Shown here piece after piece: positions 109 through 23,221 of a stretch of 23,221 nucleotides of DNA. The stretch is from NCBI GenBank assembly GCA_009602725.1, contig WELB01000024.1, forward strand, positions 513,454-536,674, read 5' to 3'. The notes under the pieces are model-generated. The model saw only the letters and a program-made list of their open reading frames with translations, had not been told where the DNA came from and ran no database searches. Both the position numbers and the translations under genes were made by a program. This DNA comes from Spirogloea muscicola (lineage: Eukaryota; Streptophyta; Zygnematophyceae; Spirogloeales; Spirogloeaceae). The first letter of the stretch is position 1, and every line of letters starts with the position of its first letter.

Positions 109-2391
109 ATGGCACAGCCCGACGGTGTCGAGAGGCCGGCGTGTCGGGCCTTGATGGAGAATCCGGCCACTCCGTCATTGAACGGCGGCCTGGTCGGGCT
201 GCCGTTGGCGAGCCCCTCGGTCGGGCCAGTCGACCGCGCCGCCTCGCCGCCTCCTTCTGGCGCGCTCGTGACCCGTCCACAGTTGGCGCCGCTGCCGTCG
301 GGCCTCCATTGTGCAGGCGGCAGCTCGGGGCCGTCGGAGGCAGTCGGCCTGCCCAACAACCTCAGTGGGGCGGCGGTGGAGGAGAAACGGGTGTCAGTAG
401 TGCCACACCCATTGCGGTTTCTGCACCTTGCAGTGGCGGCGGTTGCGGCGGTGCCGTGCCTGACGGAGCTCACCCAGCTTGGCTTCACGACGTCCCACAC
501 CGTGCTCCTCAAGGTCTGGGCGGTTGCCAGGCTGCGCTGGCCTGTCACTGCTTGGCTGTTGGTGCTGGTGCCCCAGTGGTTGCCCCAGGCATCGTGGGCC
601 TGCCAGCCGAGCGAACTGCAGAGGCAGTGGCCAGCGCTGTGCAAGCGGGTCGGGCTGGAGCCGTCCATGGAGGCGGCGCTGGCGGCGAGGACATACCGCC
701 TGGCCGACGCTGCCCTCCTGGTTGTGAAGCTCGCAGACATCACCAAGTGGCACGTGGACCGGCACACCGATGCCATCGTGAGCCACCCCCTTTCATGCTC
801 GCCAAGTCACTGCTGGCTTTGTCGGCTCTCTCACCAAGGCTGCTGCCACTTCCGTGCAAGCGTCCGCTGACGCGCAGCTGCTGCTGTTGCATGTGCCATG
901 GCTGCCACCACTGCCTCTGCCTTCTTGTGAAGGAACTCTGAAGCCTGACGGTGTTTGTTCCCATCCAATAATGTTGTGATGCTTATGATGAGGTCTGTGC
1001 AGGTCAATGCTGCCAACCAGCGCATGCTGGGCGGTGGCGGCGTGGATGGAGGTAATTTGCCCCAGCGCTCAGCATGCAGCACGAGCAAGGAGGACGACAA
1101 GCGCCTCCTGTTGTCAATCAAGTCAGAGCGCTGATCGCCCTCTGACAATCTTCGCACACGGGGCGGACGCCTCTGGCAGCCATACACCGTGCTGCCGGCA
1201 GCGAGCTCCTCAACCATTGTAGGGGCGTTCCGGAGGTCAGCCCAGGCATTCGCTGCCCCACTGGCCAGGCAGTCATCACTCCGTGAGCACGGCTGGCCCA
1301 CATGGTTGCGCTGCACGGCATCGCGGCCTTCCATGACTGCCGGCCACTTTTGCCGACCTACATTTCTCCACATGCATCGTTCCTTCTGGGCTGGCCTCTC
1401 TCAGGCATCGCCTTGCTGTGAAAGAGATATCTCTTGTCCACTTTGCCGAGTTGGTCAGACAGCCAGGTCAAGTGGATGCAGCTCTCAGGCACTTCAAGCT
1501 CATGCACAAGCTCAGCTTACTCTAAGCTGGGTAGACTTGCATCCCTTCGTCCATCTGCAGCGCCTTCAACCTGCCGGTGAAGAACGTCATCCACACAGTC
1601 GGTCCCATTTATGCGAGCCGCTGTGAGTCGGAGCCGCTGCTCTACCAGTCCTACAGGTACGAGCACCAGTGCCCAGACCCCTTCCAGAGTGGAAGCTGAT
1701 GGTATGACAATATCTAATTTTAGATTTTGTCACAGGGTGCAAAGTCCGTGAAAGACTAGGACTTCACTGCATGAGCCTGACAGTTCTAAGCTCTCTCAAA
1801 ATTGTGTCTGTGTCCACCCTTCAGGAGCTGCTTGGCAGTGGCCAAGAAGAACGGCTTGAGGCATGTCGCATTTCCAGCCATATCTTGCGGAGTCTATGGG
1901 TATGCACTACAATGCTTATTCTGAATGCAGAGCATGCCACGTGACCTGGGGTCCAAAAGGCTGCCTGCCAGTCTGAGACTGATGACTTTGGTTGACGCAT
2001 TTCACCTCTTCTGATTGTAAGACAGGTATCCATACGATGAAGCTGCTGAAATAGCACTGCAAGCTGTGAGAGACCACTCAAAGGATGGCCCTCTAAATGT
2101 GAGTTGCGCACTGATGCTAGTATTCCTTATGACATATATATGAGCTGTGCTTTCCATGTAGTCGTTCTTGTATCTTAGCGTCACTCTGCTGATTTGTACC
2201 ACTCCTATGTCTAGCACAGACGTGCTTGACGCCCTTGCTTGAGATGGTTGTCTGCTTTTTCCCCATGTTGCGATGAAAGTACTAAAGCAACTACAATTGT
2301 TTGGCAGGTCTACTTTTGCCTCTTTGACAAGCCGGCTTTGGCCGCGTGGATACAAGCAGCTGATAGCCAGTTGTCAAGAGTGGATCTGTGA
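109..2391 (+). CDS. Macrodomain (MacroD/Appr-1''-p processing type) protein, seven exons, N-terminus uncertain
   Basis: Exons: 109-777, 1003-1051, 1180-1282, 1561-1656, 1825-1899, 2026-2098 and 2308-2391. All junctions are GT-AG and the phases agree, giving 382 residues from the ATG at 109. The C-terminal ~180 residues form a macrodomain. They carry VNAAN at 224-228, the glycine-rich GGGGVDGAIHRAAG at 233-246, VIHTVGPIY at 283-291 and AISCGVYGYP at 324-333, ending in a strand with YFCLFD. Family members bind ADP-ribose, and MacroD-type proteins remove ADP-ribose from proteins or deacetylate O-acetyl-ADP-ribose; the substrate here is inferred. The first ~190 residues are Ala/Pro/Gly-rich and unrecognised. 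The frame has no stop from base 1 to 109, so the true start may lie left of the window, and an unseen intron within 370-590 is possible. The macrodomain call is firm; the N-terminus is not. Confidence 0.85.
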
Positions 2392-2465: not shown

Positions 2466-3630
2466 TTGGATCTGTTGGCTAGTGAGTAGTTGTGCTCTGA
2501 AGTTGTCACGCTTTGTGATCACGAAACTGCCCTGACTCTGGACTATGAGTGAAACGTCTGGACCGTTTTTGATCAGCAACTCACCATTGAAATAGCATAC
2601 ATACACATGTATTTGTCAGCACCACTTTGCTGCCGTAGTCAGCAAGCAAGCAAACTTCTACATCTGTGGACTGTATGTCATTTTGTCTTTTCGTGTTGTT
2701 GTAGACAAAAGTTTGCAGGCCTTTATGCAGCCCAAACCGAAGTTGGGGCTTCTCATCAGTGTTCAACAAACTCATCTTGCCTCTCCTGTTGCCACAAACC
2801 TGAAAATTGGTATTGCAAGCAAAGAATCTACACAGTGAGGGTGTCTTGCAGCAGGAAGCTTGGCTGGGAAACATACCCATTTTCCAGCTTTATGGTGTGA
2901 AAGAAAAACAGCCAGATACTTACATGCCTTCTTAATGCGACATCTAAAGGTTGCTTTAGATGTCGCAAGCCACATCCACTGCGAAGTGTTGACTGGAAAG
3001 ATGTGGAGCACGTTGTCAAGTGGGCTGCGTCATGTTTCGGTTATTTGTGTGCCCTAGCTTACTCTCTAAACCCTTCGGAGTGTATTCATTCATTTTCTAG
3101 GTTGGCCAGTCACGGCCACTGCCCATGCCTGGAAGCGTCTACTTTTCTAGGGTGACTGGATTTGCTTAATTTCAACGTGTAGAATACTTCTCAATTTTTG
3201 TAGATTGAACTGGCTGGGCCGGCTACTCTTATCACATGCTGTGGATCATGTTGAAGCTGACAAACCATGCAAATTGCTTACTCAGGGCTTATGGTCACTT
3301 GAGGAAATAAATTAACCGTTCTTACAACACAGATTTATCAGTAGTTAAGTAGTTAGTTAACGGCCCACTTTGTTCTGGCTTACATTTTCGATGCTTATGT
3401 CAGCCAAATGTGCTGGGGGCCGAACTGAACGATGTTGCGATCGTATTTTTATCAACATGGAAGTAGAGATTGCTCTAATGGTGTTAACAGTATCGTCACA
3501 GTTACTAGAGTTATTGGGATGTTTTATGATCTTGCTGTGTTTAGGAGGAGAGTTTTCAACTATTCTCATTTTGCGTGACAAGCAAAAGCAAAACACAATT
3601 TTGCCAACTTGCTCTTTAGTAACTTTTGAG

Positions 3631-5918: not shown

Positions 5919-6970
5919 ATGGACGCCAGCGGAGACATCAACAGCAGCCACGCGCCCGCGGGGCTGCATGTAGGCGCCGCTGGCACGCCAGCTCCGCTGA
6001 CGGCGGGTGTCCCAAGCGCCACCAGTCCCGGCATTGGAGCCCCCGGTGTCAGGACTCTGGCGGACGCTAAGGTTAAGATGACGGCTTCTTGCGAACTTGC
6101 CCTTCTCGGCTCTGTGCTCTCCTGTGTGCTCTCTCTGGAGCTGCGGGGCTCTTGAGTCGACATCTTTACAAATTTTCTTGTTGGTAGAAGGGAGGATAGC
6201 AAAGGCTTAGAAGGTGGTTTATCGAGGAGGTTGCTGCTTGCACACGAGGAGTATTTGTCAAGCTGCCTTGATAGCTGCCTTGAGGTGCTGGTGGCTTTGC
6301 CAAGCGTCAGGTGGGGGCGTGGCCTGATACAAGTGGTTGTGCATGCCTGAGATGCAGGCTGACTTGATCGGTCAGCAGCAGGCGGCTGAAGGAACACTAG
6401 GTGCAGGAGATGCTGACGAGAATGCGCACAAGGCAGCGGCAAAGGATCACGCTCAGGTCAGCCAACTAAGACCTTGCAGCTTCATGTCATGGGGTAATTA
6501 CGGCTCTTCACTCAAGCACACCGTTTGGTCACACTTGACAATGATAATCCCACCACTCTTTTTGATAGTGCTGTTCCACAACTTCGTGTGCGAATGCGTA
6601 TCTACGTGCCTGTCATGGATGACTGTCTCCGACTGCTAAGTGGCTACGAAGGTTTTGCTGCAGTATAGTCATTCTGATAGACCACATTGCACTCCTGCAG
6701 GACGTCAAGAGTCATACTAAGGAAACAGCTTCCCAGGGCGTCGCGGCTGCCAAGGAGGGCGCCGCAAACACAGCTGGCAAGGCAGGAGCTGCAGTGAAGG
6801 GCATGGGCGCAAAGATTACCCACATGGCTGAGCAAGTAAAGGCTAAGGTCACTGGCCATCACCCGGATAGCACAGGCACGGGCACGGCCACGGGCGCAGG
6901 CACAGGCACGGGCACAGGCACGGGCACGGGCACGGGCACAGCATCTGCAAATACAGGAACCAACCTTTAG
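5919..6970 (+). CDS. LEA/hydrophilin-like protein with Gly-Thr tail (paralogue of 10204-11020)
   Basis: Three phase-0 exons, 5919-6071, 6358-6456 and 6701-6970, encode 173 residues. Exon 1 is Ala/Gly/Pro-rich and low complexity. Exon 2 is acidic and Gln/Ala-rich. Exon 3 holds an Ala/Lys-rich amphipathic part (KETASQGVAAAKEGAANTAG) and then KITHMAEQVKAKVTGHH at 122-138, which is nearly repeated in the protein at 10204-11020. The C-terminus is a Gly-Thr alternating tail encoded by a GGCACG/GGCACA repeat. There is no Cys or Trp, no membrane segment and no signal peptide. Composition and the Ala-Lys helix match LEA-like desiccation proteins; the exact group is unclear. It shares its upstream region with the LEA gene at 4465-5165, which supports a stress role. 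The start follows a GC-rich leader, and the frame continues cleanly across both introns. Confidence 0.8.
6871..6940 (+). repeat. Coding hexanucleotide repeat (GGCACR)n
   Basis: Units of GGCACG or GGCACA run in frame and encode alternating Gly-Thr with occasional Ala. Hexanucleotide slippage here changes tail length without shifting the frame. Confidence 0.9.
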
Positions 6971-8140: not shown

Positions 8141-8159
8141 GGTTGTTCGCACTTTCCAG

Positions 8160-8205
8160 TCCCCTTGGACTTCGGTCTGGCCGTTTACAGCCACAGCGCC
8201 CTTAC
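8160..8205 (+). repeat. Hairpin repeat element, diverged copy
   Basis: The core GGTCTGGCCGTTTACAGCC lies at 8174-8192, preceded by TTGGACTTCG and followed by a GCGCCC block. This matches the layout of the copy at 17641-17690. Confidence 0.45.
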
Positions 8206-8319
8206 AGTAGAAATTTGTTTTTCAGACACGGCAGCCAAATTTCAGATAGACTGGGGATCGAGATGAGAAAAAGCTCTTCCGAAGGGGCATTGGCGGAATT
8301 GAGCTAGAGGGGCCTCTCA

Positions 8320-8404
8320 AATGAAGAAAGGGCTCGCCTATTGAGGATAGGGGCTGGAAAAGCCAGCCCCAAAAGAAATGAACAAAGTACGAGAAGGGGG
8401 CCAG
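8320..8404 (-). repeat. Hairpin repeat element
   Basis: The perfect hairpin GGGGCTGG-AAAAG-CCAGCCCC spans 8350-8370. It is flanked by GCTCGCCTATTGAGGATAG on one side and GAACAAAGTACGAGAAGG on the other. In minus orientation it follows the stop codon of the retroelement remnant, as the copy at 18878-18950 does for the second remnant. Confidence 0.75.
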
Positions 8405-8516
8405 GGGAAGCGCTAAGGGAAACAAGCACAAGAAGAAACAAAGCAGCTACGAACTATTCAGTAACCCCTGCTAAGCAGCCGCAGGTCAGAGAAGCTAGGC
8501 TCCTGGAAGTGGGTCC

Positions 8517-8605
8517 CCTGGGTCCTCCTCGTACTTTGTGTGTTCTTTTTTGAGCTGACTTTTCCAGCCTCTATCCTCGATGAGCGAGCGCTTTCCTCTT
8601 CCTGG
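8517..8605 (+). repeat. Hairpin repeat element inserted in the retroelement remnant, with CCTGG duplication
   Basis: The element spans 8522-8600. CCTGG flanks it at 8517-8521 and 8601-8605. The empty site in the other remnant (complement of 18761-18774) has CCTGG once. The core is GAGCTGACTTTTCCAGCCTC, and the flanks match the consensus (CTCGTACTTTGT before, GAGCGAGCGCTTTC after). Confidence 0.75.
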
Positions 8606-8748
8606 CCAGAGCCAGAGGCAGCAGCGAGGGCTCTGCCGGCACGCAGGTGCAGCGCGCGGGCCATAGACCTCTGCAGCGAGACGGGCAAGCGCATACGGTA
8701 CACCTGTGCTAGCGACCCGGCTGCAGGAAAGGCCACCGGCTCCCTATG

Positions 8749-8810
8749 GATGTCCTTTCTTTTTGGGCTGGCTTTGCCAGCCTCTCTTCTCTATGGGCGA
8801 GCACTTTCTC
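8749..8810 (+). repeat. Hairpin repeat element inserted in the retroelement remnant (second insertion)
   Basis: The core GGCTGGC-TTT-GCCAGCC lies at 8766-8782, preceded by CTTTCTTTTTG and followed by CTATGGGCGAGCACTTTCTC. The second remnant lacks about 65 nt at the equivalent place (near 18620). No clean target duplication is visible. Confidence 0.7.
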
Positions 8811-9329
8811 ATGCAAGCGGCGGACGATGGCGTGGCGGGCGAGCTGGTTGAGCAGCTCGAGCCACCGAGCGCCCAACGCCCCATGCCTGTCGATAGCCAG
8901 CGGGAAGAATTCGTCTTCCCGCAGATGATCGGCATACTTGAGCTCTTTAGCCCGAGCGGCGCAGGCGACCGCATACCCGGCCTTGATGGCACATTGGGCT
9001 GGGTGTGAGCGGTCGTATGGGTCAGTGGAATGAGCCAGATTGACTGGTGGCTGAAAATGGGTCCGACAGACTCGCGCCTTACTTCGAGGAGGCCATGTTT
9101 TGGTCGGCATTGTGGAAGCAAGTAGCTCTCCTTGCTGTTCTAGGGCTGTGAACAGATCGCGAATACCCCGCCCGAGAAGAATTGTGGAAGCTCTCTGAGA
9201 TGGAATATCTCTCGCTCCCACCAACCCGCAGATGGGAAAATAGATGAAAGAGAAGAAATAGGAGCAATCTCATCTACACTAGTCTGTATTCGTATACGCG
9301 AAAGACTTAACAAATTGTATATATATTGG

Positions 9330-9380
9330 CCTTGATCATTCTTTGGTGGGCTGGCTATTCACAGCCCACGCCCTTTTGGA
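9330..9380 (+). repeat. Hairpin repeat element
   Basis: The arms GTGGGCTG (9346-9353) and CAGCCCAC (9362-9369) pair perfectly. ATCATTCTTT lies upstream, and CGCCCTTTTGGAGGAGC lies downstream as in other family members. Confidence 0.65.
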
Positions 9381-9864
9381 GGAGCTGTTCTTTTTTTTGA
9401 AGTTGAAGCATTGCGGTGCGTGTGGAAATAATGGGAGGCCAAGCCTAGCCAGTACAACGCTGTGGTAAGAACAGCAGAAATTTTTGAATAGGGGCAAAGG
9501 CAACAGAATGGAAAGCACAACTGAAGGAAGTTTTTCGCGTATTTGAAACAAACGAAGGCCAAATGGCCAATTTCAAGGGCAAGCACATCTGAGAACCTAC
9601 ATAACCTACAGCAGATTGACCCGCTCAGCAATCACGGGTCACAACATAGAGGTCGCTAATCGAAGCCTGAATCCTAGATGGCAGATACGAAGCCCTTCTG
9701 CCACCAGCTAGAGCTCGCCCAGCTCCGGTGCAAAGCATCAGCCTGAGCAGAGAAAGGGCGCCCATTGAGGGGCCCAGATGGTGGCTCAAATGGAGGCCCA
9801 GAAGCTGACAGCCCTGCCTCGCCGGTGGCGCTCCGGCTCTCCAGGTCTGTCAAATCTGTATGTG

Positions 9865-10020
9865 CTCACACGTGGGTGCTACTGTCACCCTGTTTCCTTA
9901 GCCACCTTAGCATAGGGCTTCGTGTCATACAGTCCCTAACTTTGCACTAGCTTTTGCCTAAACAATGTATTGGCTTGCATTGGCCACGTTTTCATTTCAT
10001 GCGCACCGCGGGCGTCTTCC
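9865..10020 (+). repeat. Interspersed repeat family 2, copy A
   Basis: About 150 nt are related to 17165-17310. Shared blocks are GGGTGCTACTGTCACC, TTAGCCACCTTAG, a GTGTCATACAGTCCC-like block, GCCTAAACAATGTATTGGC and CATTTCATGCGCACCGCG. A shorter relative lies at 19795-19865. All three run in the same orientation. There is no coding evidence. Confidence 0.65.
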
Positions 10021-10203
10021 GAAAGAAAGTGCCTTTCAGAAGGAAGTTTCCCTCCATCAGCCGCAATCGGCTGGGCTGGCCCATATGGGCGCCCACATGG
10101 GCGGCCCCCCAATCAACGCTCCTCCGCCCCCCCCTTCACCTGTAAGTCGTTCTCACACTAGTGCAAGGAGCTCTCACAGCCCCTTCGCGAGCCAAGCGCC
10201 GCC

Positions 10204-11020
10204 ATGAACGCCGGCATGGAGCCCGCGCGCGCGCACGAGAGCGGCACCCACAAGCTCTCCGACCTGCTGAGCTCCAAGACGGGTCCCGACGGCTTCAGCG
10301 TGCCCCACGAGGGTACTGCGCCCGTCTACACGGCCTCGCCCGGCGCCGACCAGTCCGGCATGGTGGAGGCACTCAACGCTCCCCGCCACAAGCAGGTGCT
10401 GTGACCAACCTGCTCACTGGAACGAACGTCGCAGCCGTGGTGTGCGAGCGACCTGCAAAGGAAGGCGAGCTGCTGCTCTTAGGCAGCGGAAGCGGCTGGC
10501 AAGACCCACTTCGCCAGTGACGCCGTCCGCTCCTCGCCGGTGGCTCCTTGGTCCAGAGCATGGCGGAGCATGAGGCGCTCGGCCTCACCAGCGCCGGCTC
10601 GGACGGCGTCGGCGGCGACCTTGACGACAACACTCCGGTGAGGTGGTCCACAGGCATCACCGATTGTCTTCCTCGCCGCCTGATCGGAGCCGCGCATGCA
10701 AGCAGCATTGCTCCAAGTCAGGCACTTTCAGTGACTTGGTCAGCACTCCTGGGATGTCGTCCTCTGACTGTGCCCATGTTTCTGCCACAGACATCGCCGC
10801 GGCGACGATCGCATTGACGTCCTTCTACCTTCTCTGTGTCCAGGGTGTGGCAGGCGATCGTGAAGCGAGAGCTGCCCATGCTGCTGGCGGAGTGGGCGCC
10901 GCTGTGCACAGCGTGGGCGAGAAGATCACACACCTGGCGCAGGACTTGAAAGCCAAGGTCACTGGCCACCATGGCCAAGCTCACGCCCAGGACTCCCACA
11001 CTGCGGCAGCCAGCAAGTGA
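10204..11020 (+). CDS. LEA/hydrophilin-like protein (paralogue of 5919-6970)
   Basis: Three phase-0 exons, 10204-10395, 10557-10637 and 10844-11020, encode 149 residues. Exon 1 is polar, with HKLSDLLSSKTGPDG. Exon 2 is acidic and Gly/Ala-rich. Exon 3 holds GVAGDREARAAHAAGGVGAAV followed by KITHLAQDLKAKVTGHH at 118-134 and a short His/Gln/Ala tail. Exon number, intron phases, intron positions and the KITH...KAKVTGHH motif match the gene at 5919-6970, so the two are paralogues; their exon 1 sequences hardly align and the Gly-Thr tail is absent here. The protein lacks Trp and has no membrane segment. A desiccation or cold-protective role is inferred from composition and from its relative beside a LEA gene. 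The ATG at 10204 sits in a GCCGCCATGAA context, a good eukaryotic start. Confidence 0.78.
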
Positions 11021-11039
11021 GCTCTGCCACAAATGTGGT

Positions 11040-11510
11040 CCACGAGTACCGGAGGCCGACTTGCAGAAATTGCAGGTTCTGCTTTATCATGTCACATCAA
11101 CCTGGGAGTGTTGTAGCCGAGGCACTAGTCTCAAGTTTGTCATAATATTGGACGCCCTTCTCTTGTCTTCTCTTCTCTTTAGTATCTTTGGTATCTTCGG
11201 TACACAATCAGCTTTCATCACGAGAGTCTTTTGTGACAAATTTCTTACTGCTGTCGAAGAAAGAGCCCATTGTACTGTCAGGGCGGCAACTTTTTCGCAC
11301 CGCAATACATAGGCTGCCATGTCTCCAGGTTATGTGATCAATGCTTGCGAGCCTGCCCAAGAGCCTATTACCGGCATCTTAAGGGCGTCATCTGCAAATT
11401 ATGCAGCAGTAAGCGCTGCAAGAATTAAATGTTGATGCCTGGGCAAAAGCTATGGTGCGTCTCCCAGAAGCCGGGCCATTGCTCCCAATGTCGAGTTGAC
11501 TTGGGCATAT
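11040..11510. other. Intergenic stretch between convergent genes
   Basis: This region separates the plus-strand LEA-like gene from the minus-strand membrane-protein gene. It holds only short ORFs that match nothing and is probably 3' UTR on both sides. Confidence 0.5.
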
Positions 11511-11520
11511 CTATTTGTAT

Positions 11521-11525
11521 TTACA
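11521..11525 (-). terminator. Putative polyadenylation signal TGTAA (membrane-protein gene)
   Basis: TTACA on the plus strand reads TGTAA on the minus strand, 65 nt after the stop codon at 11590. That is a normal distance for chlorophyte genes. Confidence 0.5.
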
Positions 11526-11589
11526 ATCTTCACGCGCACGCCCAACAAGCGATGGGTACCATGGCAACAACGGTCATCAAATAGAGCTC

Positions 11590-13573
11590 TCATTGCCCAA
11601 TTTCAAAAACTTGTCGGTCATCATCATCTTCGGTCCACATCATTGGCGGCGCCTCCTTCTCGCGCATGAGCTTCCAGAGAGAGTAACCATGGGCTGCTAT
11701 GAGCATGGGCACCGCATACAAGGAGAGCAATGACACAGTAAAGTAAAAGTAGCTTGTTGGCAGTCTCTGAACCTTCTGGCTCTGCAGATATGGACCCAGG
11801 ATGCGGTCGTTGAGGATGTTGGCCAGCAGAAAGAATGTCAGGCCGGTGATGTTCCACACAAGGCCCATCTGGCGAGCAAATCTGCAGCATATGCCATCGG
11901 CTCCAGCCCCACATCAGCTAGTCAAATTTAGCAGCTGTACCAAGATGGATCCAGAGATTCTACCACATGCTTTTGCCTTGCTACAGTAGCCGCAAGCACG
12001 GCCATCGAAGAGTGAAATTGGAGGTTCCCAAGTCAGTACGATGACCAGGGCACAGCCACATAGTTCCACTAACTTCTCACCTGTCCTTGGTTGCAAAAGC
12101 ATTCGCCACCACAGGCGCCAGGATTGCTATCAGAACGTCGCCGTAACCAACTAGCGCGAGCCACACAACAACCAGGAGGTAAGGGCCACAGCAACTGGCA
12201 CAATGCCAATCATAGCTTGACATTCTGTCTGACTGCTGGTCTTCGTCTTGCACATTTGCGGGCGGCCACACCTGCAACAAGTGCTAGTCTTGCTGCCTTT
12301 TCACAACGTGCAGACTGTGGAAATGCGCAAGATGCTCCAACCAGTCAAGCGCCTGAGAGATCAGATTGACTCAAGCCAACCCTGCTGCAACTCAAGAAAC
12401 TGCTGCCTTCTGCACAACCGCCAAGGAGCAATGTTGCACACCTATAACGGCGAAGCTTGCTGGCAGAAGTCGCATATCGCGCAAGGCAAGGTACAGGAAA
12501 CCGTAGATGCGGATGACGTGCAGGCCAATAAGCCACGTCTGGGGCGTGGAGCGCAGCACGTCCCGGAAAATGGGGAAGAGCACAGGAGGTGCCACGGCAG
12601 CCGCACCTACGACGAGGTATGTCAAGGCATGACCCACGAAGCCACCCACGAGGCCCGCTGGCGCAAAGATGTGAATGAAGGTGAACCAGCCAAAGAGGCC
12701 AACGAGAACGTAGCTCGTTGGAGGGTCCTGCAGCAGCAGTGACCCAATACAAGTGACCCAATACAAGTTCATATGATAGGTCCATATAGAGTCTGAGCTC
12801 ATACTTGGACTCAAAGACTAGGTGGTGATGGCAAAGCTACATTCCCGAAAGCAACACCCTGGAGCTCGTCGTGCACTGAAGTAACTGACCTCAGAGTCAG
12901 AAGAGACCAGCTATTGAGACTGATGCATTGATACTGGAGCTCAGTAACGCCTCATAACTCGAGTCAGAGTGCCAGGGTCTCACTTCTCAAGCTTATGTAC
13001 GTGCACTCCATTTCCTGGCTGCTATCAACCACATTGATAGGGTAAGTCCTGGGTGCGAAGCTGCTCATCAAACCTGGAGGAGGGGCGATATGTTGGGGAT
13101 GCTGTCCATGCCCGCTCTGGTCCAGGCATACACGCAAAGCGGTGCTGGTCAGCGGCACCCATGAAGGGCCTGGGACTCGCATCCGCAGTGTGGCAGTGGA
13201 CCATAGCACAAGCGGGCGACCGGCTGCAGGCTTCATTGGGGCCGTATATAATAGGCTCCAAAGAGATCACCCCCCACTGATATGCTGGGCCTTGCCGGTG
13301 CAGAGACGGCAAGACGGACCAGCGCTGCATGTGGTGCGAGGCGCAAGTGCTGAAAGAGTGGAGCTGGCCCGAAGTCCCTCACCTCAGCGCCAGGAAGACG
13401 AGGAGCGTGATGGCGAAGTCGACGATGTAGACTGCAAGACCGGGCGGCGGACGACCAAGGTGACCAGCAGTCAGAGTGCGTAGCAGAAACTCGGGTGCAG
13501 AGCTGGAGCACCCAAGCTTCTGCGGCCGGCGCAGTCGGTCGTGCCATTGGGCGAGTGGGGGACCGGTGGCCAT
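11590..13573 (-). CDS. Polytopic membrane protein of unknown function, bacterial-like family; one section unresolved
   Basis: Well-supported exons are 12727-12442, 12150-12081 and 11881-11590, with matching phases and GT-AG ends. A likely first exon is 13573-13383, with VYIVDFAITLLVFLAL near its end. It finishes in phase 2 while the next supported exon starts in phase 0, so at least one exon in 13382-12728 is missing; a segment from 13349 containing AYQWGVISLEPIIYG is a candidate. About seven hydrophobic helices are visible. The layout LPASFAVIVGYGDVLIAILA, then GLVWNITGLTFFLL and an LPTS...SLLSLYAVP stretch before an acidic tail, resembles an uncharacterised bacterial membrane family (FALPAGxGDVLVG...WNxxGLLD...PT); this resemblance is from memory. 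No substrate can be assigned. The gene is divergent from the LHC gene at 14136. Confidence 0.65.
12739..12766. repeat. 14-nt perfect tandem duplication beside a splice acceptor
   Basis: AGTGACCCAATACA occurs twice head to tail (12739-12752, 12753-12766). It lies just upstream, on the minus strand, of the acceptor for the exon starting at 12727. Confidence 0.85.
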
Positions 13574-13655
13574 GCCGTCGGCCTCGGCTGTGCCTCCCGC
13601 AGGGCACGACGTGAGAGCCGACCGAGCTGGGCGCGCAGCGCACTGGCGGGCGCGA

Positions 13656-13690
13656 GGGTTAGGGTCTGCGGTTTAGGGTTAGGGTTCAGG
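13656..13690 (+). repeat. Interstitial telomere-like repeat
   Basis: Three or four degenerate units of (T)TTAGGG lie here, including GGTTTAGGGTTAGGGTT. TTTAGGG is the plant-type telomere unit. It sits in the divergent region between the membrane-protein and LHC genes. Confidence 0.6.
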
Positions 13691-13772
13691 AGGCTCCTCC
13701 GCACCTGCGAGCGCGGTGTGCACTGGGAACGGCGTGGGGCTCGCCTCTGCCTCCATGACGGCCACGTCTTGC

Positions 13773-13774
<2 letters not shown>

Positions 13775-13813
<39 letters not shown>
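13775..13813 (+). repeat. (GCC)13 trinucleotide run
   Basis: Thirteen GCC units lie in a very GC-rich stretch of the 562-bp divergent intergenic region. Long ORFs through it on both strands are compositional artefacts. Confidence 0.9.
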
Positions 13814-13815
<2 letters not shown>

Positions 13816-14047
13816 GCCGGCCTAGGCGCGCGCGGCGGAGGCGAGCCTCGCCGCCAGGCGCGGCGGGGCCTTGCCGGCGCCGCTTTGGAGGAGCACTCGA
13901 GAGAGAGCGGCTGCTGCTGTGAGATGAGCGGCTGACCAAGCCAGCCAGCCAGGTGCATACAGACGGTGCTCATGACTACATAGCAAGTCGCTCTCCCACT
14001 AAACTTCAGCGGAGCCACAGGCGGGGGATGCTCGAGGCGCCTTTCCG

Positions 14048-14085
14048 GTGGGGCAGGGTTTAAGCCGTGGGGCAGGGCTTAAGCT
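14048..14085 (+). repeat. 19-nt tandem duplication upstream of the LHC gene
   Basis: GTGGGGCAGGGTTTAAGCC (14048-14066) is followed directly by a copy with two differences (14067-14085), 50 nt before the ATG. It is probably in the 5' leader or core promoter; a regulatory role is unproven. Confidence 0.8.
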
Positions 14086-14135
14086 GGCCAGGGATTGAGC
14101 CTCTCCCCCACCCCTTCCCCGGAGGACTGCCCGCC

Positions 14136-16122
14136 ATGGCCGCCGCTGCCATTGCCGCCGCGGGCGTCGCCGCCGGCTGCGGCTTCGCCGCGAGTCGTCG
14201 AAGCCACGTGGACGGCGCCGTCGCGTCGGTGGCCGCTCCAGGGCGCCCGGTGAGCCTGGGGCCAGCCCCCTTGCCCTCGACTTTGCTGGGGACTTCTCGG
14301 TCTTCCTTGCGGAAGCGGCGGGCTGCAGCTTGCAGGCCGGGTCATGGCGCTCAGCTGGAATGCCTTGCTCGTAATTTTTCCAGCAGCAGCGGCTGTCGAC
14401 GACGGCGCGCCCGGCGTACGTGGAGGACGACGGCCCCACAGACGAGGACATGGCGAACGTCGGCCTCGACGACGTCTTCAGCCTCATCGAGAAGGTGGTT
14501 ACTACCGCCGCCTTAGGGTTTCCACCCAGATATCAAAATGTGGGAAACCCAGAGGCTGGTCCTGTACTCTTGACCGTGACTGTGGCGACTGCAGAGCTGT
14601 AGCCACCTGGAGTAGCCCCAAGCAAGGTGGCTTCGCCTCAGCATCCAGCGACTGGTGCACCTGGAAGCAGAGGGGCATGATTCCGGGACTTCCTAACGCT
14701 CTTGGCAAACAGTTGCTCATACCTCTGGGCGCTTCTGTTCCAACAGGCCACAGCGGCGGACCCTGAGCCAGCCATCGGTACGCCCAGGTCCGGCGGCGGC
14801 TCGTCAGCCATCGCCCGCTGGTATAAGGTGAGGCCCCCGGCTCCCGTTCCGGCGACCCAGTACGCACCAGCAGCAAGAAGAGCAGGACTCTGGCTGGCGC
14901 TGAGTCGCTGGCAGCCGTGCTCGCTCGGGCAGGCTTTTTGTTGATGTCACTCAGGAAGACAGTGGTGAGTCATGCGCTCATAGCTTGCAAAGCCCTCTCT
15001 TTGCACCCCCAGGCGTACTGGCTCTCGGTCCCGCCAGGCGTAGACGTCTGGAGGGCGTACTACGGCCCGAGCCGCCCGCTGTACAAGGGCTCCAATACAA
15101 CGCCCCAAGACATTCCCACATATCTGAAGGTGGGCACTGTAGGCGCCACCATGTGCGGTGAGCTGAGCTGCTGACGTTGGCCAGTCTCCGCAGGCGACAT
15201 GCCCCATGCAACCTGTATGCGGAGTGTTGAAGACCTGACGCCCTGCAAGGGCAACGATGTAGGGCGAGTACCCTGGCGACTATGGATGCGACCTCTTGAG
15301 ACTGTGCGGCGAAAAGGACAGATACGCCACCCTCCGGGCTCAGGAGCTCCTCAATGGGCGGTGGGCCATGCTGGGCGTCACCGGCTGCCTTTACCCCGAG
15401 CTCAGTGGGATCCGTGGTGACGGATTCGAGCCAGTGTGGTTTAAGACCGGCGCTCAGATCTTCAAATCGGAAGGCATCGACTACTTGGGCAACCCAAATC
15501 TCATCAACGCCCAGAGGTGCGCATGTAAGGGTCTTCAAAGGCTCTCCTGCCCCTCTCACTTCTCTCCCCGCAAGTTCTCAATACGAATTCGTATGCCTCT
15601 GCTCTTCTCCTTTCTATCACCCCTACTTTGTTCAACTTAAGAAGGTGGCCGTTATGTCAATGATTTCTCAGAGAGGAGATCTGTTGTGACTGCCCTGCTT
15701 TCCTTCAACTTACACCAAAGTTCGTCCCCTACTACAATGTCGTTTTGGGGTTATGCAGCCTGCTGGCGGTAATAGCAGTGCAAGTTCTGCTCATGGGAGC
15801 TGCCGAGTGGCTGCGGGCTAAGCGTGGAGCAGAGGGCACAGATCCACTGTATCCGGGTGGCCTGTTTGATCCCCTCGGTTTCGCCAAGGATGAGGAGGTG
15901 CTCGCGGACCTGAAAGTGAAGGAGGTCAAGAATGGCCGCTTGGCGATGGTTGCCATGGCAGGTGAGTAGAAAGACCTGCATTGTACACTTTGCTGTCATA
16001 ATCTCATCTATCAGATGGCCGCAACTAACATAGCTGAGTGTGTGTGCTTAGGACTCTTTGCCCAAGGAGCTGTCACTGGCGTGGGACCAATTGATAACCT
16101 GACAACCGTTCTACACTTGTGA
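14136..16122 (+). CDS. Divergent chlorophyll a/b-binding (LHCB-like) protein precursor
   Basis: Seven exons, 14136-14249, 14384-14494, 14747-14827, 15013-15129, 15263-15516, 15759-15961 and 16052-16122, join in frame to 316 residues. Residues 1-38 look like an Ala/Ser/Arg transit peptide, so the product should be a thylakoid antenna protein. An acidic, low-complexity N-terminal extension follows to about 102. The LHC body has YYGPSR (118-123), GEYPGDYG (142-149), helix B with E169, N172 and R174, WFKTGAQIF...IDYLGNPNL, helix C with Q234, E242 and R245, DPLYPGG..DPLGFA, and helix A with E281, N284, R286 and Q298. These spacings match LHCII exactly. Differences from LHCII: Asn replaces the His at the Chl 603 position, WYGPDR is YYGPSR, YGWD is YGCD, and the chain stops just after the position of His212. 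It binds chlorophyll by family; the assignment to a particular LHCB is open. Confidence 0.92.
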
Positions 16123-16129
16123 AGCAAGT

Positions 16130-16790
16130 CAGACGTCTACTTTGCTTGCCACTTATTGTAGATCGCGGAGTTCCTTCCGCCCTAAGGTGACCTAGGCTTG
16201 CATATAGGCGCCCATCAGCACCTTTGCTGCAAATTGCAGTCAATCAAGCACCAGGTATCAGGACTTTACCGCAAGGTAGTCCTGCAGGTAGAGTCACAAT
16301 TGACATGGGGCTTACATCTCTGGTGTGCAACAAACAGGCGTAGTAGATCAAAGTTCAGGTGTCGAATGTCATAAGGTGCTGGTCCGTCTTTATTGATATG
16401 TTGTTGAAGCGCGCATCTGATACTGTGCTTCAAGCACAAGCGTTTAGGTCTTGCAGGCTTCCTGGTCTGAGAAGCATCAACCCTCTGAGGGAAATAGTCC
16501 GAGACACAGAGTACCTGCAATGGCTGCATACCTGCATAGAGAAAAGTATTGGCACTGCATAGCTCACGATGCTCTCCACACATAATTGCAGTCCACTACA
16601 GCTTTCCGGGCTGGGCTTGGCGATTTCAGCCATCTTGCTGCTACAAGGTTAACCAACAACTGTCTGCGCTGCACACAAAAGGTGGGGCTTGTTCAGCCCT
16701 TAGCGATGGACGGAGTGCAAAGGGCCATTTTGGTGCCTGAGCTTGACGCATGCTCTAAGCCAACAACGAGGACCTAGAGCTGGCCATTGG
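16130..16790. other. Intergenic stretch without a recognised gene
   Basis: Only short ORFs are present and none is recognised. No TGTAA signal lies close behind the LHC stop. Part of it will be the LHC 3' UTR. Confidence 0.45.
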
Positions 16791-16835
16791 CAGGCGCCTT
16801 GAAGGTCTTTCTAACAAAGGGCCTCTTCCAAGACG

Positions 16836-16870
16836 AGGCTATAATTGTGAGAGGGCAGCCCAGAAAGACT
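16836..16870 (-). repeat. Hairpin repeat element, weak copy
   Basis: GGCTATAATTGTGAGAGG and GCAGCCC form a loose version of the core, followed by AGAAAGA as in better copies on this strand. Confidence 0.3.
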
Positions 16871-16969
16871 GGAGGTGCATCCAGTGGAAGGGCAGCTCTT
16901 TCAAAGCCTTCAGAAGGAGAAGAAGCTCTTTGAAAGGGGGCAATGTCTATCAAAGAATTAAAGTGCTTA

Positions 16970-17050
16970 CCTGAAAGGGGCGATGTCTGTGGAAGGCCAG
17001 CCCAAACAAGCTCGGACGAGGCCGGAGGGGGCCGGGAAGCAGTGAAGCAC
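16970..17050 (-). repeat. Hairpin repeat element with downstream block
   Basis: GGGGCGATGTCTGTGGAAGG is followed by CCAGCCCA and AACAAG. Next comes CCGGAGGGGGCCGGGAAGC, a block also seen as CCGAAGGGGCCAGAAAAGC at 18263 and AAGGGGCCGGAATGCGC at 19124. Confidence 0.55.
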
Positions 17051-17164
17051 ACAGCTCCGCAGTTATACTACACTGGGTGCGCAATGACCCCCAGACAGCA
17101 ACAGCATGGCAGCCGCAAGTCAGCATAGCGTTCACCAGCCACCAGTCAATCTGGCCGCGTTTTC

Positions 17165-17310
17165 GCTTCACCCGAGGGTACTGATGTCACCTTAGGCACC
17201 TTGGTTTCGGTTTGCGTGTTATGTAGCCCAATGTGGTTTGCCCTAGACTCTGCCTGAACAATGTGTCGGCTTGAATTGGCCTCCATTTCATTTCATGCGC
17301 CCCGCGCGCC
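17165..17310 (+). repeat. Interspersed repeat family 2, copy B
   Basis: This copy is related to 9865-10020. Shared blocks are GGGTACTGATGTCACC, TTAGGCACCTTGG, GCCTGAACAATGTGTCGGC and CATTTCATTTCATGCGCCCC. The orientation is the same as copy A. Confidence 0.65.
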
Positions 17311-17360
17311 TTCTCTCTTCACCGGGAAGCTCGACACCAAGAAGAAGGTCATGTAGAAGA

Positions 17361-17430
17361 AAGAAAGAAAGAGCTCTTCCAATGGTAAGCAGTGGCCGTG
17401 GGAGGTCAGCCCACAAAGAACGAACAAGAA
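17361..17430 (-). repeat. Hairpin repeat element (first of a tandem pair)
   Basis: The core GTGGCCGTGGGAGGTCAGCC lies at 17392-17411, preceded by AAAGAGCTCTTCCAATGG and followed by ACAAAGAACGAACAAG. Confidence 0.55.
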
Positions 17431-17490
17431 GAAAGACTCCTCCAGTAGAGGGCGATGGCTGCAATGGGCCAGCCCAGCACAAGAATGAAC
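17431..17490 (-). repeat. Hairpin repeat element (second of a tandem pair)
   Basis: AGTAGAGGGCGATGGCTG is followed by the opposite arm CCAGCCCA and AAGAATGAACAAGG. It is nearly the same as the copy at 18209-18255. Confidence 0.65.
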
Positions 17491-17629
17491 AAGGAAATTA
17501 AGGAAGGCGATGGGGCTTCTCTGAGGCATCTGCAAAAGCTGCCGTTTCAAGCCAGCCATGGCTGCGTCGGCTGTCCAGCCGCTATAGACAGTCTCTTAGT
17601 CTCTTGCATAGCTGTGCGCTTTTCTTTGC

Positions 17630-17692
17630 ACCTTTCCGCCCTTTGGACCTTGTCTTTTCTTTCTGGGCTGGCCATCTACAGCCCCCGCCCCG
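17630..17692 (+). repeat. Hairpin repeat element
   Basis: The arms GGGCTG (17665-17670) and CAGCCC (17679-17684) flank an 8-nt loop. CTTTTCTTTCT lies upstream and CCGCCCCG downstream. Confidence 0.65.
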
Positions 17693-17699
17693 TTAATCG

Positions 17700-18200
17700 C
17701 GCAGACCTGGCTTCAATGCTGCCGGCTCCCAAGCCCAGGTACTTCGCATGAGGCTGGCGGTCTCGTTCCAGCGCTCTCTGGCTTACGCAGTCACACAGGC
17801 CGCGCTATGGCTGCTGCCTCAGGGTCTCGGCTGAATGTTTCTTTCCCAGCTTCGAGTTCTTCTGGCTTGCTGTTGCTCACCCGTGGATACTGAGCTTCCA
17901 TTTGCATCACTTCGTTTCCCGTTGTGTAGTTTGCAAGCGGCAGAAGGCCTCCAACGAGTCGGGACGGGGTGCAGCACTGCGGAGCACCTGGTAGCAGAGA
18001 TCCGCCTGGGCCCACAGAGGCTTCAGATAGGACAAAGAGGGGAGTAGCAACAGAGATCCTCCTGACTGCCCGACAAGGCGATACCTTGGCGGCCATGTGC
18101 CAGGTGCAGCGGCACGTGTCCGGCAAGGCTGCACCTGCGGATGGCGCCTTGGATTCTCCTGACGTCAATTGATGTCCAGTGGAGCTAACACAGAGAAAAA
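17700..18200. other. Spacer inside repeat cluster, no recognised gene
   Basis: Overlapping ORFs occur on both strands (the longest about 125 codons, minus) but resemble nothing I know. No hairpin copy is seen in this part. Confidence 0.4.
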
Positions 18201-18208
18201 GGACTTAC

Positions 18209-18285
18209 CAAGTAGAGGGCGATGGCTGTGATTGACCAGCCCAGAAAAGCATGAACACAGTCCGAAGGGGCCAGAAAAGCGGTAA
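18209..18285 (-). repeat. Hairpin repeat element with downstream block
   Basis: AGTAGAGGGCGATGGCTGTG, then ATTGACCAGCCCA, then CATGAACACAGTCCGAAGG. The block GGGGCCAGAAAAGCGG follows. Its full layout makes it a good model for the longer form of the element. Confidence 0.65.
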
Positions 18286-18451
18286 AGCATTCAGTGACTC
18301 AAGTGGCCCCTGGAAGCTCAATATCCCCTTAATTATACAAGGTACGGTAGCGGGCGTCGTGAAAGCTCAGTCTGTGGGTTTGATTGGGTGACTACGGCCT
18401 CCACGGAAGAAAGTGACGATTATCCTAAGGGGCCCGAGGGCTGTGAAAAAC

Positions 18452-18828
18452 GGCTGGGTATGCGGTCGCCTGCGCTGCTCGGGCCAAAGAGCTGAAGTAC
18501 GCGGATCATCCGCGGGAAGACGAGTTCTTCCCGTTGGCCATCGACACACAATGGGGCGCTGGGCGCTCGGTGGCTCGAGCTGCTCACCCAGCTCGCCCGC
18601 CACACCATCGCCCGGCGCTTCTATGGAGAGCCTGCAGACTTCCCTGCAGCCGGGTCGCTGGCGCAAGTGTATCGAATGCGCCTGGCCGTCTCGCTGCAGA
18701 GGTCCATGGCCCGGGCGCTGCACCTTCGTGCCGGCAGAGCCCTCGCTGCTGCCTCTGGCTCTGGCCAGGGGACCCACTTCCAGGAGCCCAGCATCTCTGA
18801 TCTGCGGCTGCTTAGCAGGGGTTACTGA
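18452..18828 (+). mobile_element. Non-LTR retrotransposon C-terminal remnant, copy 2 (uninterrupted but frameshifted)
   Basis: This is the inverted relative of 8461-9010. Read on the plus strand it begins YAVACAARAKELKYADHPRE and DEFFPLAIDTQWGA. A one-base insertion near 18549-18556, relative to copy 1, throws the frame. In the restored register it ends with RMRLAVSLQRSMARALHLRA and LRLLSRGY-stop at 18826-18828. It lacks both hairpin insertions found in copy 1 and so serves as the empty-site reference. Both copies keep only this C-terminal part, as expected of 5'-truncated LINE copies, and both are followed by a hairpin element. The family identification is from memory; the homology of the two copies is seen directly. 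Confidence 0.55.
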
Positions 18829-18877
18829 GTGTCTCGTAGCTGCTTTGTTTCTGTTTCTTAGCGCTTCCCCTGGCCCC

Positions 18878-18950
18878 CTTCTCGTACTCTGTTCATTCTT
18901 TTTCGGGCTGGTTGTTCCAGCCCCTATTCTCAATGGGCGAGCACTTTCTT
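18878..18950 (+). repeat. Hairpin repeat element
   Basis: The arms GGGCTGG (18905-18911) and CCAGCCC (18917-18923) pair perfectly. The flanks are CTTCTCGTACTCTGTTCATT upstream and CAATGGGCGAGCACTTTCTT downstream, the clearest match to the copies at 8320, 8522 and 8749. Confidence 0.75.
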
Positions 18951-18969
18951 CTGTGCAAAAGGCAGAGTG

Positions 18970-19027
18970 TTAGGGTTTCGGATTTTAGATTTAAAGTTCA
19001 GGGTTCAATCTAGGGTGTAGGGTTTGG
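18970..19027 (+). repeat. Degenerate telomere-like tract
   Basis: GTTAGGGTTTCGG, then GTTCAGGGTTCAATCTAGGG and TGTAGGGTTTGG, resemble worn-down TTTAGGG units. The tract starts about 20 nt after the hairpin element behind retroelement copy 2. Confidence 0.4.
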
Positions 19028-19042
19028 TCCGCAAGCAATTTA

Positions 19043-19150
19043 CAAGGTCCGAAGGGGCCAAAATGCGCCGTGGAAAATGCAGGCACATCCTAAGAGGGGC
19101 GAATGCTGTGAAAAGCTAGGACAAAGGGGCCGGAATGCGCTGTGGAAGCT
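19043..19150 (+). repeat. Two diverged units of the GGGGCC block
   Basis: GGTCCGAAGGGGCCAAAATG, ending GCGCCGTGGAAAA, and later GGACAAAGGGGCCGGAATGC, ending GCTGTGGAAGCTC, are about 75-80 nt apart. A GAGGGGCGAATGCTGTGAAA half-hairpin lies between them. They match the block downstream of the hairpins at 16970 and 18209. Confidence 0.5.
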
Positions 19151-19189
19151 CATTCGGGGTGGTGAACCCTCGTGCTATCTTTGCCCAGC

Positions 19190-19235
19190 TTTGTTCGGTT
19201 TATTCCCTGGGCTGGCCGATCACAGCCTCTAGAAA
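19190..19235 (+). repeat. Hairpin repeat element
   Basis: CTTTGTTCGGTTTATTCC precedes GGGCTGG (19209-19215) and ACAGCC; this is the family core with a CCGATC loop. Confidence 0.6.
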
Positions 19236-19299
19236 GGCCCACCCGTAGTAGCTACTTCCTTTGTCGAGTGATATTCGATTTTTGGCTCCTCCGAAGACA

Positions 19300-19350
19300 G
19301 TCCAAATCCTCTGGGCTGGCCTTTCCACAGGATCTGTTTCATGCAAGAGC
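19300..19350 (+). repeat. Hairpin repeat element, partial
   Basis: GGGCTGGCCTTTCCACAG lies at 19313-19330. The CAGCC arm is cut short (CAGGATC), so the copy is diverged or truncated. Confidence 0.45.
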
Positions 19351-19359
19351 ATCTCCTTC

Positions 19360-19405
19360 TCCGGAGAGGCCAGATTGCTGTGACGGCCAGCCCAGAGCAA
19401 CGAAG
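19360..19405 (-). repeat. Hairpin repeat element
   Basis: GCTGTGACGGCCAGCCCAGA lies at 19377-19396 and is followed by GCAACGAAGG. It is in opposite orientation to the partial copy at 19300. Confidence 0.6.
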
Positions 19406-19524
19406 GGAAAGTGGTGGGGCAGGACGATGACCCCGGAGAAGGCCGGCTTAGCACAGCTCAAGCAGACGACCTTGCCGGCCAACTTCCAAAACTAGAGCGG
19501 CAGCTCCAGGAAAGAAGAAGAAGT

Positions 19525-19585
19525 GGCACTCCCAATGGGGACAAGGGCTGCCAAAAGGCAGCCCAAAACGAATTGACTAAGGCGG
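19525..19585 (-). repeat. Hairpin repeat element with perfect 8-bp stem
   Basis: GGGCTGCC-AAAA-GGCAGCCC lies at 19545-19564. CAATGGGGACAA precedes it and AAACGAATTGACTAAGG follows. Both arms differ from the usual GGGCTGGC at the same paired position, which suggests pairing is conserved. Confidence 0.65.
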
Positions 19586-19689
19586 AGGGACTTACAAGCT
19601 CCAGGAAAGAGAAATGCTGAGGGGCAAGTTGGGTCAGGTACATAGCCGTCAGCCACCTTACCTCATTTGCCAGCACAGGAGGATGCTTC

Positions 19690-19730
19690 TAGTGCAGGAC
19701 GGTAGCTGTGAGAGCCAGCCCAGGAGCAGC
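19690..19730 (-). repeat. Hairpin repeat element
   Basis: GGTAGCTGTGAGAGCCAGCC lies at 19701-19720 and is followed by CAGGAGC. It is the last copy at the right end of the second cluster. Confidence 0.5.
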
Positions 19731-23195: not shown

Positions 23196-23221
23196 TTTTT
23201 TTTTTTTTTTTTTTTTTTTTT
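23196..23221. repeat. Poly(T) run at the window end
   Basis: At least 26 consecutive T residues reach the end of the window. On the minus strand they lie in the open frame upstream of the kinase and would encode poly-Lys, which is implausible as protein. They may be an intronic or promoter homopolymer or an assembly edge. Confidence 0.85.

What the first reader, a model, noticed from the sequence alone, without database searches (positions are those of the whole stretch)
8160..19730. Dense family of short hairpin repeats in two clusters, possibly an undescribed mini-transposon
About 16 copies share a core GGGCTGGC, a 3-9 nt loop and CAGCC. Better copies have TTGTTCATTCTTT before it and either CTATTCTCAATGGGCGAGC or ATCGCCCTCTACT after it. 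They lie on both strands, only at 8.1-9.4 kb and 16.9-19.75 kb, and not inside the genes recognised here. Some copies extend into a CCGAAGGGGCC block. One copy (19545-19564) changes both stem arms together and still pairs, which hints that the hairpin matters. I know no named family with this core.
Basis: seen in the sequence. Interest (0 to 1): 0.75.

Follow-up and report, generated by a model that had tools for sequence, protein, structure and literature searches.

The report
Retrotransposon tail fragments with shared hairpin
The dense little hairpin repeats are the chopped-off tail ends of several related "copy-and-paste" jumping genes (R2-like LINEs) that have spread through this probably algal genome, not a separate mini-transposon; these families carry nearly the same short hairpin at the end where copying starts.

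Summary
The strict motif occurs 10 times in the window against 0.11 expected, and a covariance model finds 18 places. It is spread over the 153-Mb genome: one exact 34-nt tail occurs 1,168 times.

The interpretation changes. The hairpin lies in the 3' UTR of at least four families (A-D) of single-ORF non-LTR retrotransposons, about 50-100 nt after the stop codon. The ORF carries weak C2H2 zinc fingers, a reverse transcriptase and a restriction-like endonuclease motif. The closest solved proteins are R2.

Copies share the 3' end, not the 5' end. Lengths run from 35 nt to the fetch limit (384) in 40 family-A copies and from 39 nt to the limit (332) in 20 family-C copies. Target duplications of 7 nt or more flank 13 of 32 and 9 of 19 usable copies, against 1.2 and 0.3 expected. 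Exact markers fall from 1,168 to 333, 86 and 28 towards the 5' end.

So these are 5'-truncated LINE tails made by target-primed reverse transcription. The hairpin is probably the enzyme's 3' recognition signal (inferred); covariation was tested and not found.

The parts
18447..18951 (+). Copy A: 5'-truncated family-A LINE (end of ORF with endonuclease motif, stop 18826-18828, 3' UTR, common 3' end ...CTTTCTTC at 18951)
   Evidence: tblastn of L010 ORF 18447-18825; 3' end compared with L001-L008
18905..18923 (+). Hairpin GGGCTGGTTGTTCCAGCCC of copy A
8323..9029 (-). Copy B: older 5'-truncated family-A LINE, inverted relative to copy A, interrupted by two mini copies; 3' end at 8323
8351..8369 (-). 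Hairpin of copy B
8522..8600 (+). 79-nt mini copy (family A tail) inserted in copy B; 5-bp duplication CCTGG at 8517-8521 and 8601-8605; copy A has the empty site
   Evidence: alignment, read by eye (E 2.7e-14)
8749..8809 (+). 61-nt mini copy (family A tail) inserted in copy B; possible imperfect 4-bp duplication TATG/CATG; copy A has the empty site
   Evidence: alignment, read by eye (E 1.1e-12)
19516..19596 (-). 81-nt family-B tail with 8-bp stem GGGCTGCC/GGCAGCCC, flanked by a perfect 14-bp duplication TCTTTCCTGGAGCT (19502-19515, 19597-19610)
18188..18278 (-). Tail copy with ATCGCCCTCTACT 3' segment (class F; source LINE not identified)
   Evidence: E 1.1e-17
17421..17512 (-). Tail copy, class F
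   Evidence: E 5e-14
16949..17039 (-). Tail copy, older, class F-like
   Evidence: E 1.1e-10
9312..9402 (+). Tail copy, older
   Evidence: E 1.5e-12
17630..17719 (+). Tail copy, older, ending next to a LINE ORF remnant
   Evidence: (E 2.1e-12)
17712..17890 (+). C-terminal ORF remnant of another related LINE family
   Evidence: tblastn E 5e-5
19171..19268 (+). Tail copy, degraded
   Evidence: E 4e-9
19278..19366 (+). Weak tail copy
   Evidence: E 0.0012
19339..19425 (-). Weak tail copy
   Evidence: E 0.0042
19669..19722 (-). Weak tail copy
   Evidence: E 0.0036
19008..19065 (-). Weak tail copy without the hairpin (GGCCCCTTCGGACCTTGT block only)
   Evidence: (E 0.0014)
8152..8228 (+). Weak tail copy
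   Evidence: E 0.017
1357..1441 (+).
   Evidence: E 1.8e-4
3062..3153 (+).
   Evidence: E 7.2e-4

Best explanation
The hairpin repeats are the 3' tails of several related non-LTR retrotransposon (LINE) families with one ORF (weak C2H2 zinc fingers, reverse transcriptase, restriction-like endonuclease motif). SHOWN: in families A-D the hairpin sits in the 3' UTR, about 50-100 nt after the stop; copies of families A and C share the 3' end (...CTTTCTTC, ...CTTGCTTC), are cut at variable 5' points and are often flanked by short duplications (7-21 bp); copy number falls steeply towards the 5' end in family A; two mini copies in the window occupy sites that are empty in a sister copy. INFERRED: the enzyme binds the 3' tail RNA, with the conserved GGGCUGG...CAGCC hairpin as part of the recognised signal; it nicks the target and primes on the freed end, often with C or CTTC microhomology; it often falls off after a few tens to hundreds of bases, so many insertions are tiny and consist of little but the hairpin tail. 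Repeated insertion, often into other LINE copies on either strand, gives the dense two-strand clusters.
For: empty sites; in 8 of 8 loci the likeness stops right behind the query's 3' end; ORF, RT, R2 as best match; KX2KY motif in the 3 ORFs aligned, two of them 97% identical; hairpin behind LINE stop codons in families A, B, C, D; 1,168 and 218 exact tails, reversed controls 0; 5' ends from 35 and 39 nt upward; duplications against swapped-flank control; marker gradient 333, 86, 28; 14-bp duplication at 19516-19596; 57-nt copy in L075 with a 21-bp duplication, read by eye.
Against: 19 of 32 family-A and 10 of 19 family-C copies show no duplication of 7 nt or more. Truncation and duplications were measured for families A and C only. 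Class F tails in the window were not traced to an ORF, and at least two related ORF remnants (L023 near 3813, L024 near 604) show no sense copy of the motif in the 200 or so nt behind them. The 5' end of the full element was not found. There is no covariation for the hairpin or for an outer stem, and of 8 tails folded only 2 fold clearly better than shuffles (z -4.4 and -3.0; the other six -1.8 to +0.8). Recognition of the hairpin thus rests on position, sequence conservation across families and analogy. No RNA or activity data. The endonuclease has motif support only, without a Pfam or PDB hit to that domain.
Confidence: 0.92

Rival explanations
1. An independent mini-transposon or SINE of about 60-90 nt that borrows the LINE tail and is mobilised in trans from its own transcript.
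For: Many copies are 48-100 nt long (16 of 40 in family A; 10 of 20 in family C), and LINE-tailed SINEs are known from the green alga Chlamydomonas (PMC3747384, passages read).
Against: No preferred 5' end is seen: the lengths in families A and C form a continuum. One of 40 and three of 20 copies are cut inside the hairpin. The copies measured are collinear with the LINE 3' end up to their break. Families B, D and F were not measured.
Confidence: 0.05
2. DNA transposon or MITE, or fold-back element, with the hairpin as terminal inverted repeat.
For: Inverted pairs of tails occur in the clusters.
Against: Single tails are flanked by duplications of varying length. No shared 5' terminus. Longer copies carry a reverse-transcriptase ORF.
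Confidence: 0.01
3. Local duplication or satellite spread within this region only.
For: The two clusters share a ~650-bp inverted repeat.
Against: Copies genome-wide; 49 model matches at E<=0.01, in 11 of 17 sampled 10-kb pieces (17 of the 49 are model seeds); flanks differ.
Confidence: 0.01
4. A host RNA element (small RNA, riboswitch, terminator) with conserved hairpin.
For: Strongly conserved stem sequence (the seeds of the alignment were picked by that motif).
Against: No Rfam match at gathering threshold in the window. Mobile-element boundaries and duplications. No covariation.
Confidence: 0.01

Closest known systems
R2 and R2-like non-LTR retrotransposons, including non-site-specific R2-like elements of Blattella germanica (PMC7650587, passages read)
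   Same: N-terminal zinc finger, RT, C-terminal endonuclease motif in one ORF; 5'-truncated copies; the cockroach R2-like elements are randomly located too; solved R2 proteins are the best PDB matches.
   Different: Probably algal host; several families with one near-invariant 3' hairpin; zinc-knuckle spacing C-X1-C-X12-H-X3-C here against CX2-3CX7-8HX4C in PMC5678591; clade not placed by a tree.
Stringent-type LINEs with a 3' stem-loop (ZfL2-1/ZfL2-2; PMC4176376, abstract read; UnaL2 seen only as named in PMC3747384 passages)
   Same: A short stem-loop near the 3' end, expected to be bound by the LINE protein.
   Different: Each of those two zebrafish proteins recognises its own tail strictly; here restriction-like-endonuclease type LINEs with a stem sequence nearly invariant among families; binding untested.
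Utopia / NeSL / HERO restriction-like-endonuclease LINEs (PMC4640811, passages read)
   Same: Domain layout: zinc finger(s), RT, zinc finger, RLE. HERO is said to contain many non-specific families.
   Different: Utopia and NeSL are mostly target-specific; the flanks of the 60 tail copies fetched here look unlike each other by eye (not tested against gene models).
Green-algal LINEs L1, RandI/Dualen, RTEX and their SINEs (PMC3747384, passages and table text read)
   Same: LINEs of green algae; LINE-tailed short elements known.
   Different: In its table all 8 RandI and 6 RTEX families and 10 of 15 L1 families of green algae end in 3' repeats (5 L1 families in none); the elements here end without a simple repeat by eye and the ORF has no APE domain hit.

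Membership tests
Non-LTR retrotransposon (LINE) | Reverse transcriptase ORF | tested here: met
   RVT_1 E 8.5e-16
Non-LTR retrotransposon (LINE) | Common 3' end with variable 5' truncation | tested here: met
   marker gradient
Non-LTR retrotransposon (LINE) | Variable-length target-site duplications | tested here: met
   13 of 32 and 9 of 19 at >=7 nt against 1.2 and 0.33 expected
Restriction-like-endonuclease LINE | KX2KY catalytic motif behind a zinc knuckle | tested here: met
   KELKY and KLHKY in the 3 ORFs aligned (two are 97% identical); motif definition PMC5678591
Restriction-like-endonuclease LINE | Knuckle spacing CX2-3CX7-8HX4C | tested here: not met
   CX1CX12HX3C in the 3 ORFs aligned; definition PMC5678591
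Restriction-like-endonuclease LINE | Restriction-endonuclease fold of the C-terminal domain | not tested
   No PDB sequence match to the domain; no structure prediction run
Restriction-like-endonuclease LINE | No APE endonuclease domain | tested here: met
   No APE family at E<=1 in the 1335-aa ORF
R2 clade proper | Insertion in 28S rDNA at one site | tested here: not met
   Flanks differ from copy to copy in the loci read
R2 clade proper | Placement in RT phylogeny | not tested
   No reference set of RT sequences on hand; only PDB comparison
Stringent-type LINE (3' stem-loop recognition) | Stem-loop in the 3' tail, kept between families | tested here: met
   Families A-D
Stringent-type LINE (3' stem-loop recognition) | Compensatory changes in the stem | tested here: not met
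   1 of 259 cells, 91 of 500 shuffles reach it; covariation score reached by 36 of 500
Stringent-type LINE (3' stem-loop recognition) | Tail required for retrotransposition or bound by the protein | not testable with these tools
   Needs an assay
SINE / mini-transposon | Shared 5' end | tested here: not met
   (families A and C)

The most novel reading that the evidence does not exclude
Several LINE families that have diverged to about 46-67% protein identity keep one nearly invariant 3' hairpin. The tail may act as a shared entry signal, so that any of the enzymes can copy any tail, and low processivity turns many events into hairpin-sized insertions: a genome-wide seeding of one RNA signal (roughly tens of thousands of copies) by restriction-like-endonuclease LINEs in a photosynthetic eukaryote.
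Probability: 0.25. Interest if true: 0.6.

Novelty: new member of a known kind. Interest (0 to 1): 0.4.

Why it matters
It turns an apparently new mini-transposon into a clear case of LINE 5' truncation. It adds dispersed, probably restriction-like-endonuclease LINE families from a probable green alga, a group whose LINEs listed in the 2013 review read here (PMC3747384) were L1, RandI and RTEX. The many short, identical tails and the shared hairpin offer a natural data set for what an R2-like enzyme needs at the 3' end and how it picks targets.

Tried and rejected
Rfam scan of the window: no family. Pfam on window fragments and on L004 fragments: nothing useful for the C-terminal domain; PDB sequence search with that domain: no hit. 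Outer stem around the hairpin: family A folds with one (L010, z -4.4), but pairing upstream and downstream segments across nine tails showed no excess for matching pairs; rejected as a conserved feature. Hairpin covariation: not found. A mini-transposon or SINE with fixed 5' end: rejected for families A and C. Naming the organism: the one paper search for the assembly failed on a term that was too short and was not repeated; 'green alga' is inferred from a chlorophyll a/b-binding protein exon and is not proven. Papers: the searches that ran were 58, 63, 64, 75, 76 and 77; among the titles they listed I saw none on this element, which says little beyond those terms, the listed rows and that library. 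AlphaFold was not run: the tool's list of allowed sources does not name loci taken with the fetch from genomes. The genome search DNA searches score only 40 candidates, so their match counts are lower bounds.
Full report
The window belongs to a eukaryote. It holds exons of a protein kinase (22871-23221) and a chlorophyll a/b-binding protein (15296-15640), and a LEA-like ORF that scores below Pfam's cut-off, and it is part of a 153.1-Mb assembly in 471 contigs. A green alga is likely but not proven.

The repeats are real. The strict motif is found 10 times (8 places) in the window against 0.11 expected. The R1 covariance model was built from 25 copies chosen by a motif search, 8 of them from the window and 17 from the sample described below. 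It finds 18 places in the window at E<=0.02, 11 of them at E<1e-8. Because the seeds were chosen by motif, the model favours copies with an intact core, and the seeds match by construction.

The two clusters are partly one sequence: stretches within 8323-8982 and 18452-18951 are inverted repeats of each other, 85-91% alike in five pieces. Aligned, copy B (minus strand) contains two extra blocks, at about 8522-8600 and 8749-8809, each a short hairpin tail in the opposite orientation, where copy A has none. The first is flanked by CCTGG on both sides. Thus two mini copies are insertions with an empty site in the sister copy.

A 106-nt query ending at the last base of the tail matched 43 places in the genome; there were 779 candidates, of which 40 were scored. 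In the 8 loci cut out, all complete matches to the query, likeness stops right behind it, after ...GCGAGCACTTTCTTC. Upstream, two of the eight (L002, L003) break off within 60 nt and the other six continue into the LINE (by eye). Going upstream in longer copies gave L010, with an open ORF of 1335 aa, and L012, with 1320 aa; the two share 3,927 bp at 99.6%. The L010 ORF matches RVT_1 (E 8.5e-16) and, far below the cut-offs, C2H2 zinc fingers. Its best PDB matches are R2 retrotransposon proteins (E 7e-7; with a profile of three ORFs 1.2e-14, against 2e-4 or worse for the non-R2 RTs listed).

One of 17 hand-placed 10-kb pieces contained another open ORF, L022 1616-5701, 1361 aa, 46% identical to the first. 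The three aligned ORFs keep a C-X1-C-X12-H-X3-C knuckle, RRVDL...DVV and a K-X2-K-Y motif. In PMC5678591 (passages read) the first K of KX2KY is the catalytic lysine of the restriction-like endonuclease of LINEs; the knuckle spacing given there differs. I therefore call these R2-like LINEs with a probable restriction-like endonuclease. No tree was made.

The other hairpin classes belong to further LINE families. From stop codon to hairpin I count 76 nt in family A (L010; the window copy A gives the same), 97 nt in class B with CTTGCCCCCATTGGGAG (L020, L071), about 65 nt in class C with CCAGTTAATCTGG (L072; that copy itself reads TTCAGTTAATCTGG) and 53 nt in a variant D behind the L022 ORF, whose stem lacks the first G. 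The ORF pieces beside B and C are about 64-67% identical to that of family A. The class with ATCGCCCTCTACT (F) was not traced to an ORF. Two related ORF remnants (L023 near 3813, L024 near 604) show no sense copy of the motif in the roughly 200 nt shown behind them.

Truncation was tested on copies chosen by exact tail only. Family A: 1,168 exact tails in the genome, reversed control 0. The listing is capped at the first 100, all on contigs C1-C10; I fetched 40, the odd-numbered ones up to number 79. Their lengths run 35, 48, 48, 52, 55, 55, 57, 63 and so on; four reach the fetch limit and two run into N; the median is 138.5 nt. Family C: 218 exact tails, reversed control 0; of the 100 listed I fetched every fifth, 20. 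Lengths run from 39 to 272 nt, and one copy reaches the fetch limit of 332. One of 40 and three of 20 copies begin inside the hairpin, so its left arm is not a boundary.

Flanking duplications were compared with swapped flanks. In family A, 32 of 40 copies were used (dropped: four at the fetch limit, two at N runs, two longer than 350 nt); 13 have 7 nt or more, 1.2 expected. In family C, 19 of 20 were used; 9 have 7 nt or more, 0.33 expected. The longest in this test is 18 bp (L061). A 57-nt copy in L075 has 21 bp (read by eye). In the window, the copy at 19516-19596 has 14 bp; for the other 17 window copies the same script found nothing or direct repeats of 7 to 9 nt, which were not tested against chance. 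Many duplications begin with C or CTTC, letters shared with the element's end, and the base after the family-A end is T in 32 of 40: microhomology or a target preference.

Copy number falls towards the 5' end, as in LINEs: 1,168 exact tails at the 3' end, and exact 28-mers starting 403, 1,029 and 3,637 nt from it occur 333, 86 and 28 times. Divergence within the ORF lowers the later counts to an unknown degree.

Abundance: the 17 pieces hold 128,220 non-N bases (one piece is all N). A slightly looser motif (GGGCTG[GA]-N2-9-CAGCC) hits 29 times there, palindromes counted twice, against 0-3 in five random sequences of similar dinucleotide make-up. The model has 49 matches at E<=0.01, in 11 of 17 pieces, 17 of them seeds. 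If this density and the non-N share hold for the genome, that is roughly 44,000 tail copies; the pieces were placed by hand and the copies are clustered, so this is an order of magnitude only.

Does the hairpin matter? It lies at the place where LINE enzymes are known to bind their RNA, and its sequence is kept while the rest of the 3' UTR differs between families. But across 55 aligned copies only 1 of 259 cells is a double change, and 91 of 500 shuffles do as well; the covariation score is reached by 36 of 500. An outer stem seen in family A is not kept between families. Of 8 tails folded, 2 fold clearly better than shuffles. The copies are mostly dead (inferred), so covariation is hardly expected among them; few source families are known. 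Recognition of the hairpin by the LINE protein is thus inferred by analogy with stringent-type LINEs (PMC4176376, abstract; PMC3747384, passages).

Conclusion: ordinary in mechanism (5'-truncated LINE tails by target-primed reverse transcription), of moderate interest because of the host, the dispersed R2-like families, the shared invariant hairpin and the many very short copies.

Noticed in passing
window 9941-10013 and 17237-17309: 73-nt direct repeat, 82% identical; by eye it resembles the sequence behind LINE ORF ends in L023 and L024, perhaps the tail of yet another LINE family without the GGGCTGG hairpin.
   Followed up: partly
L002, L003, window 17630-17719 and 8749-8809: Several tails sit at nearly the same place in the coding sequence of other LINEs (around CTTCAATGCTGCCGG or its equivalent, by eye); a possible preferred target, not tested for significance.
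   Followed up: no
family A copies, L030-L069: Half of 40 copies are 135 nt or shorter, yet copies of about 4 kb exist; a single fall-off rate hardly explains both.
   Followed up: no
window 22871-23221 (-), 15296-15640 (+), 4468-4905 (-): Protein kinase exon, chlorophyll a/b-binding protein exon and a LEA-like repeat ORF (LEA_4 below Pfam's cut-off): host genes around the repeat clusters.
   Followed up: partly
window 6870-6939: Short tandem array of the hexamer GCACGG, 11.7 copies.
   Followed up: no
L013-L029: About a quarter of the sampled bases read N (128,220 of 170,000 are letters).
   Followed up: no
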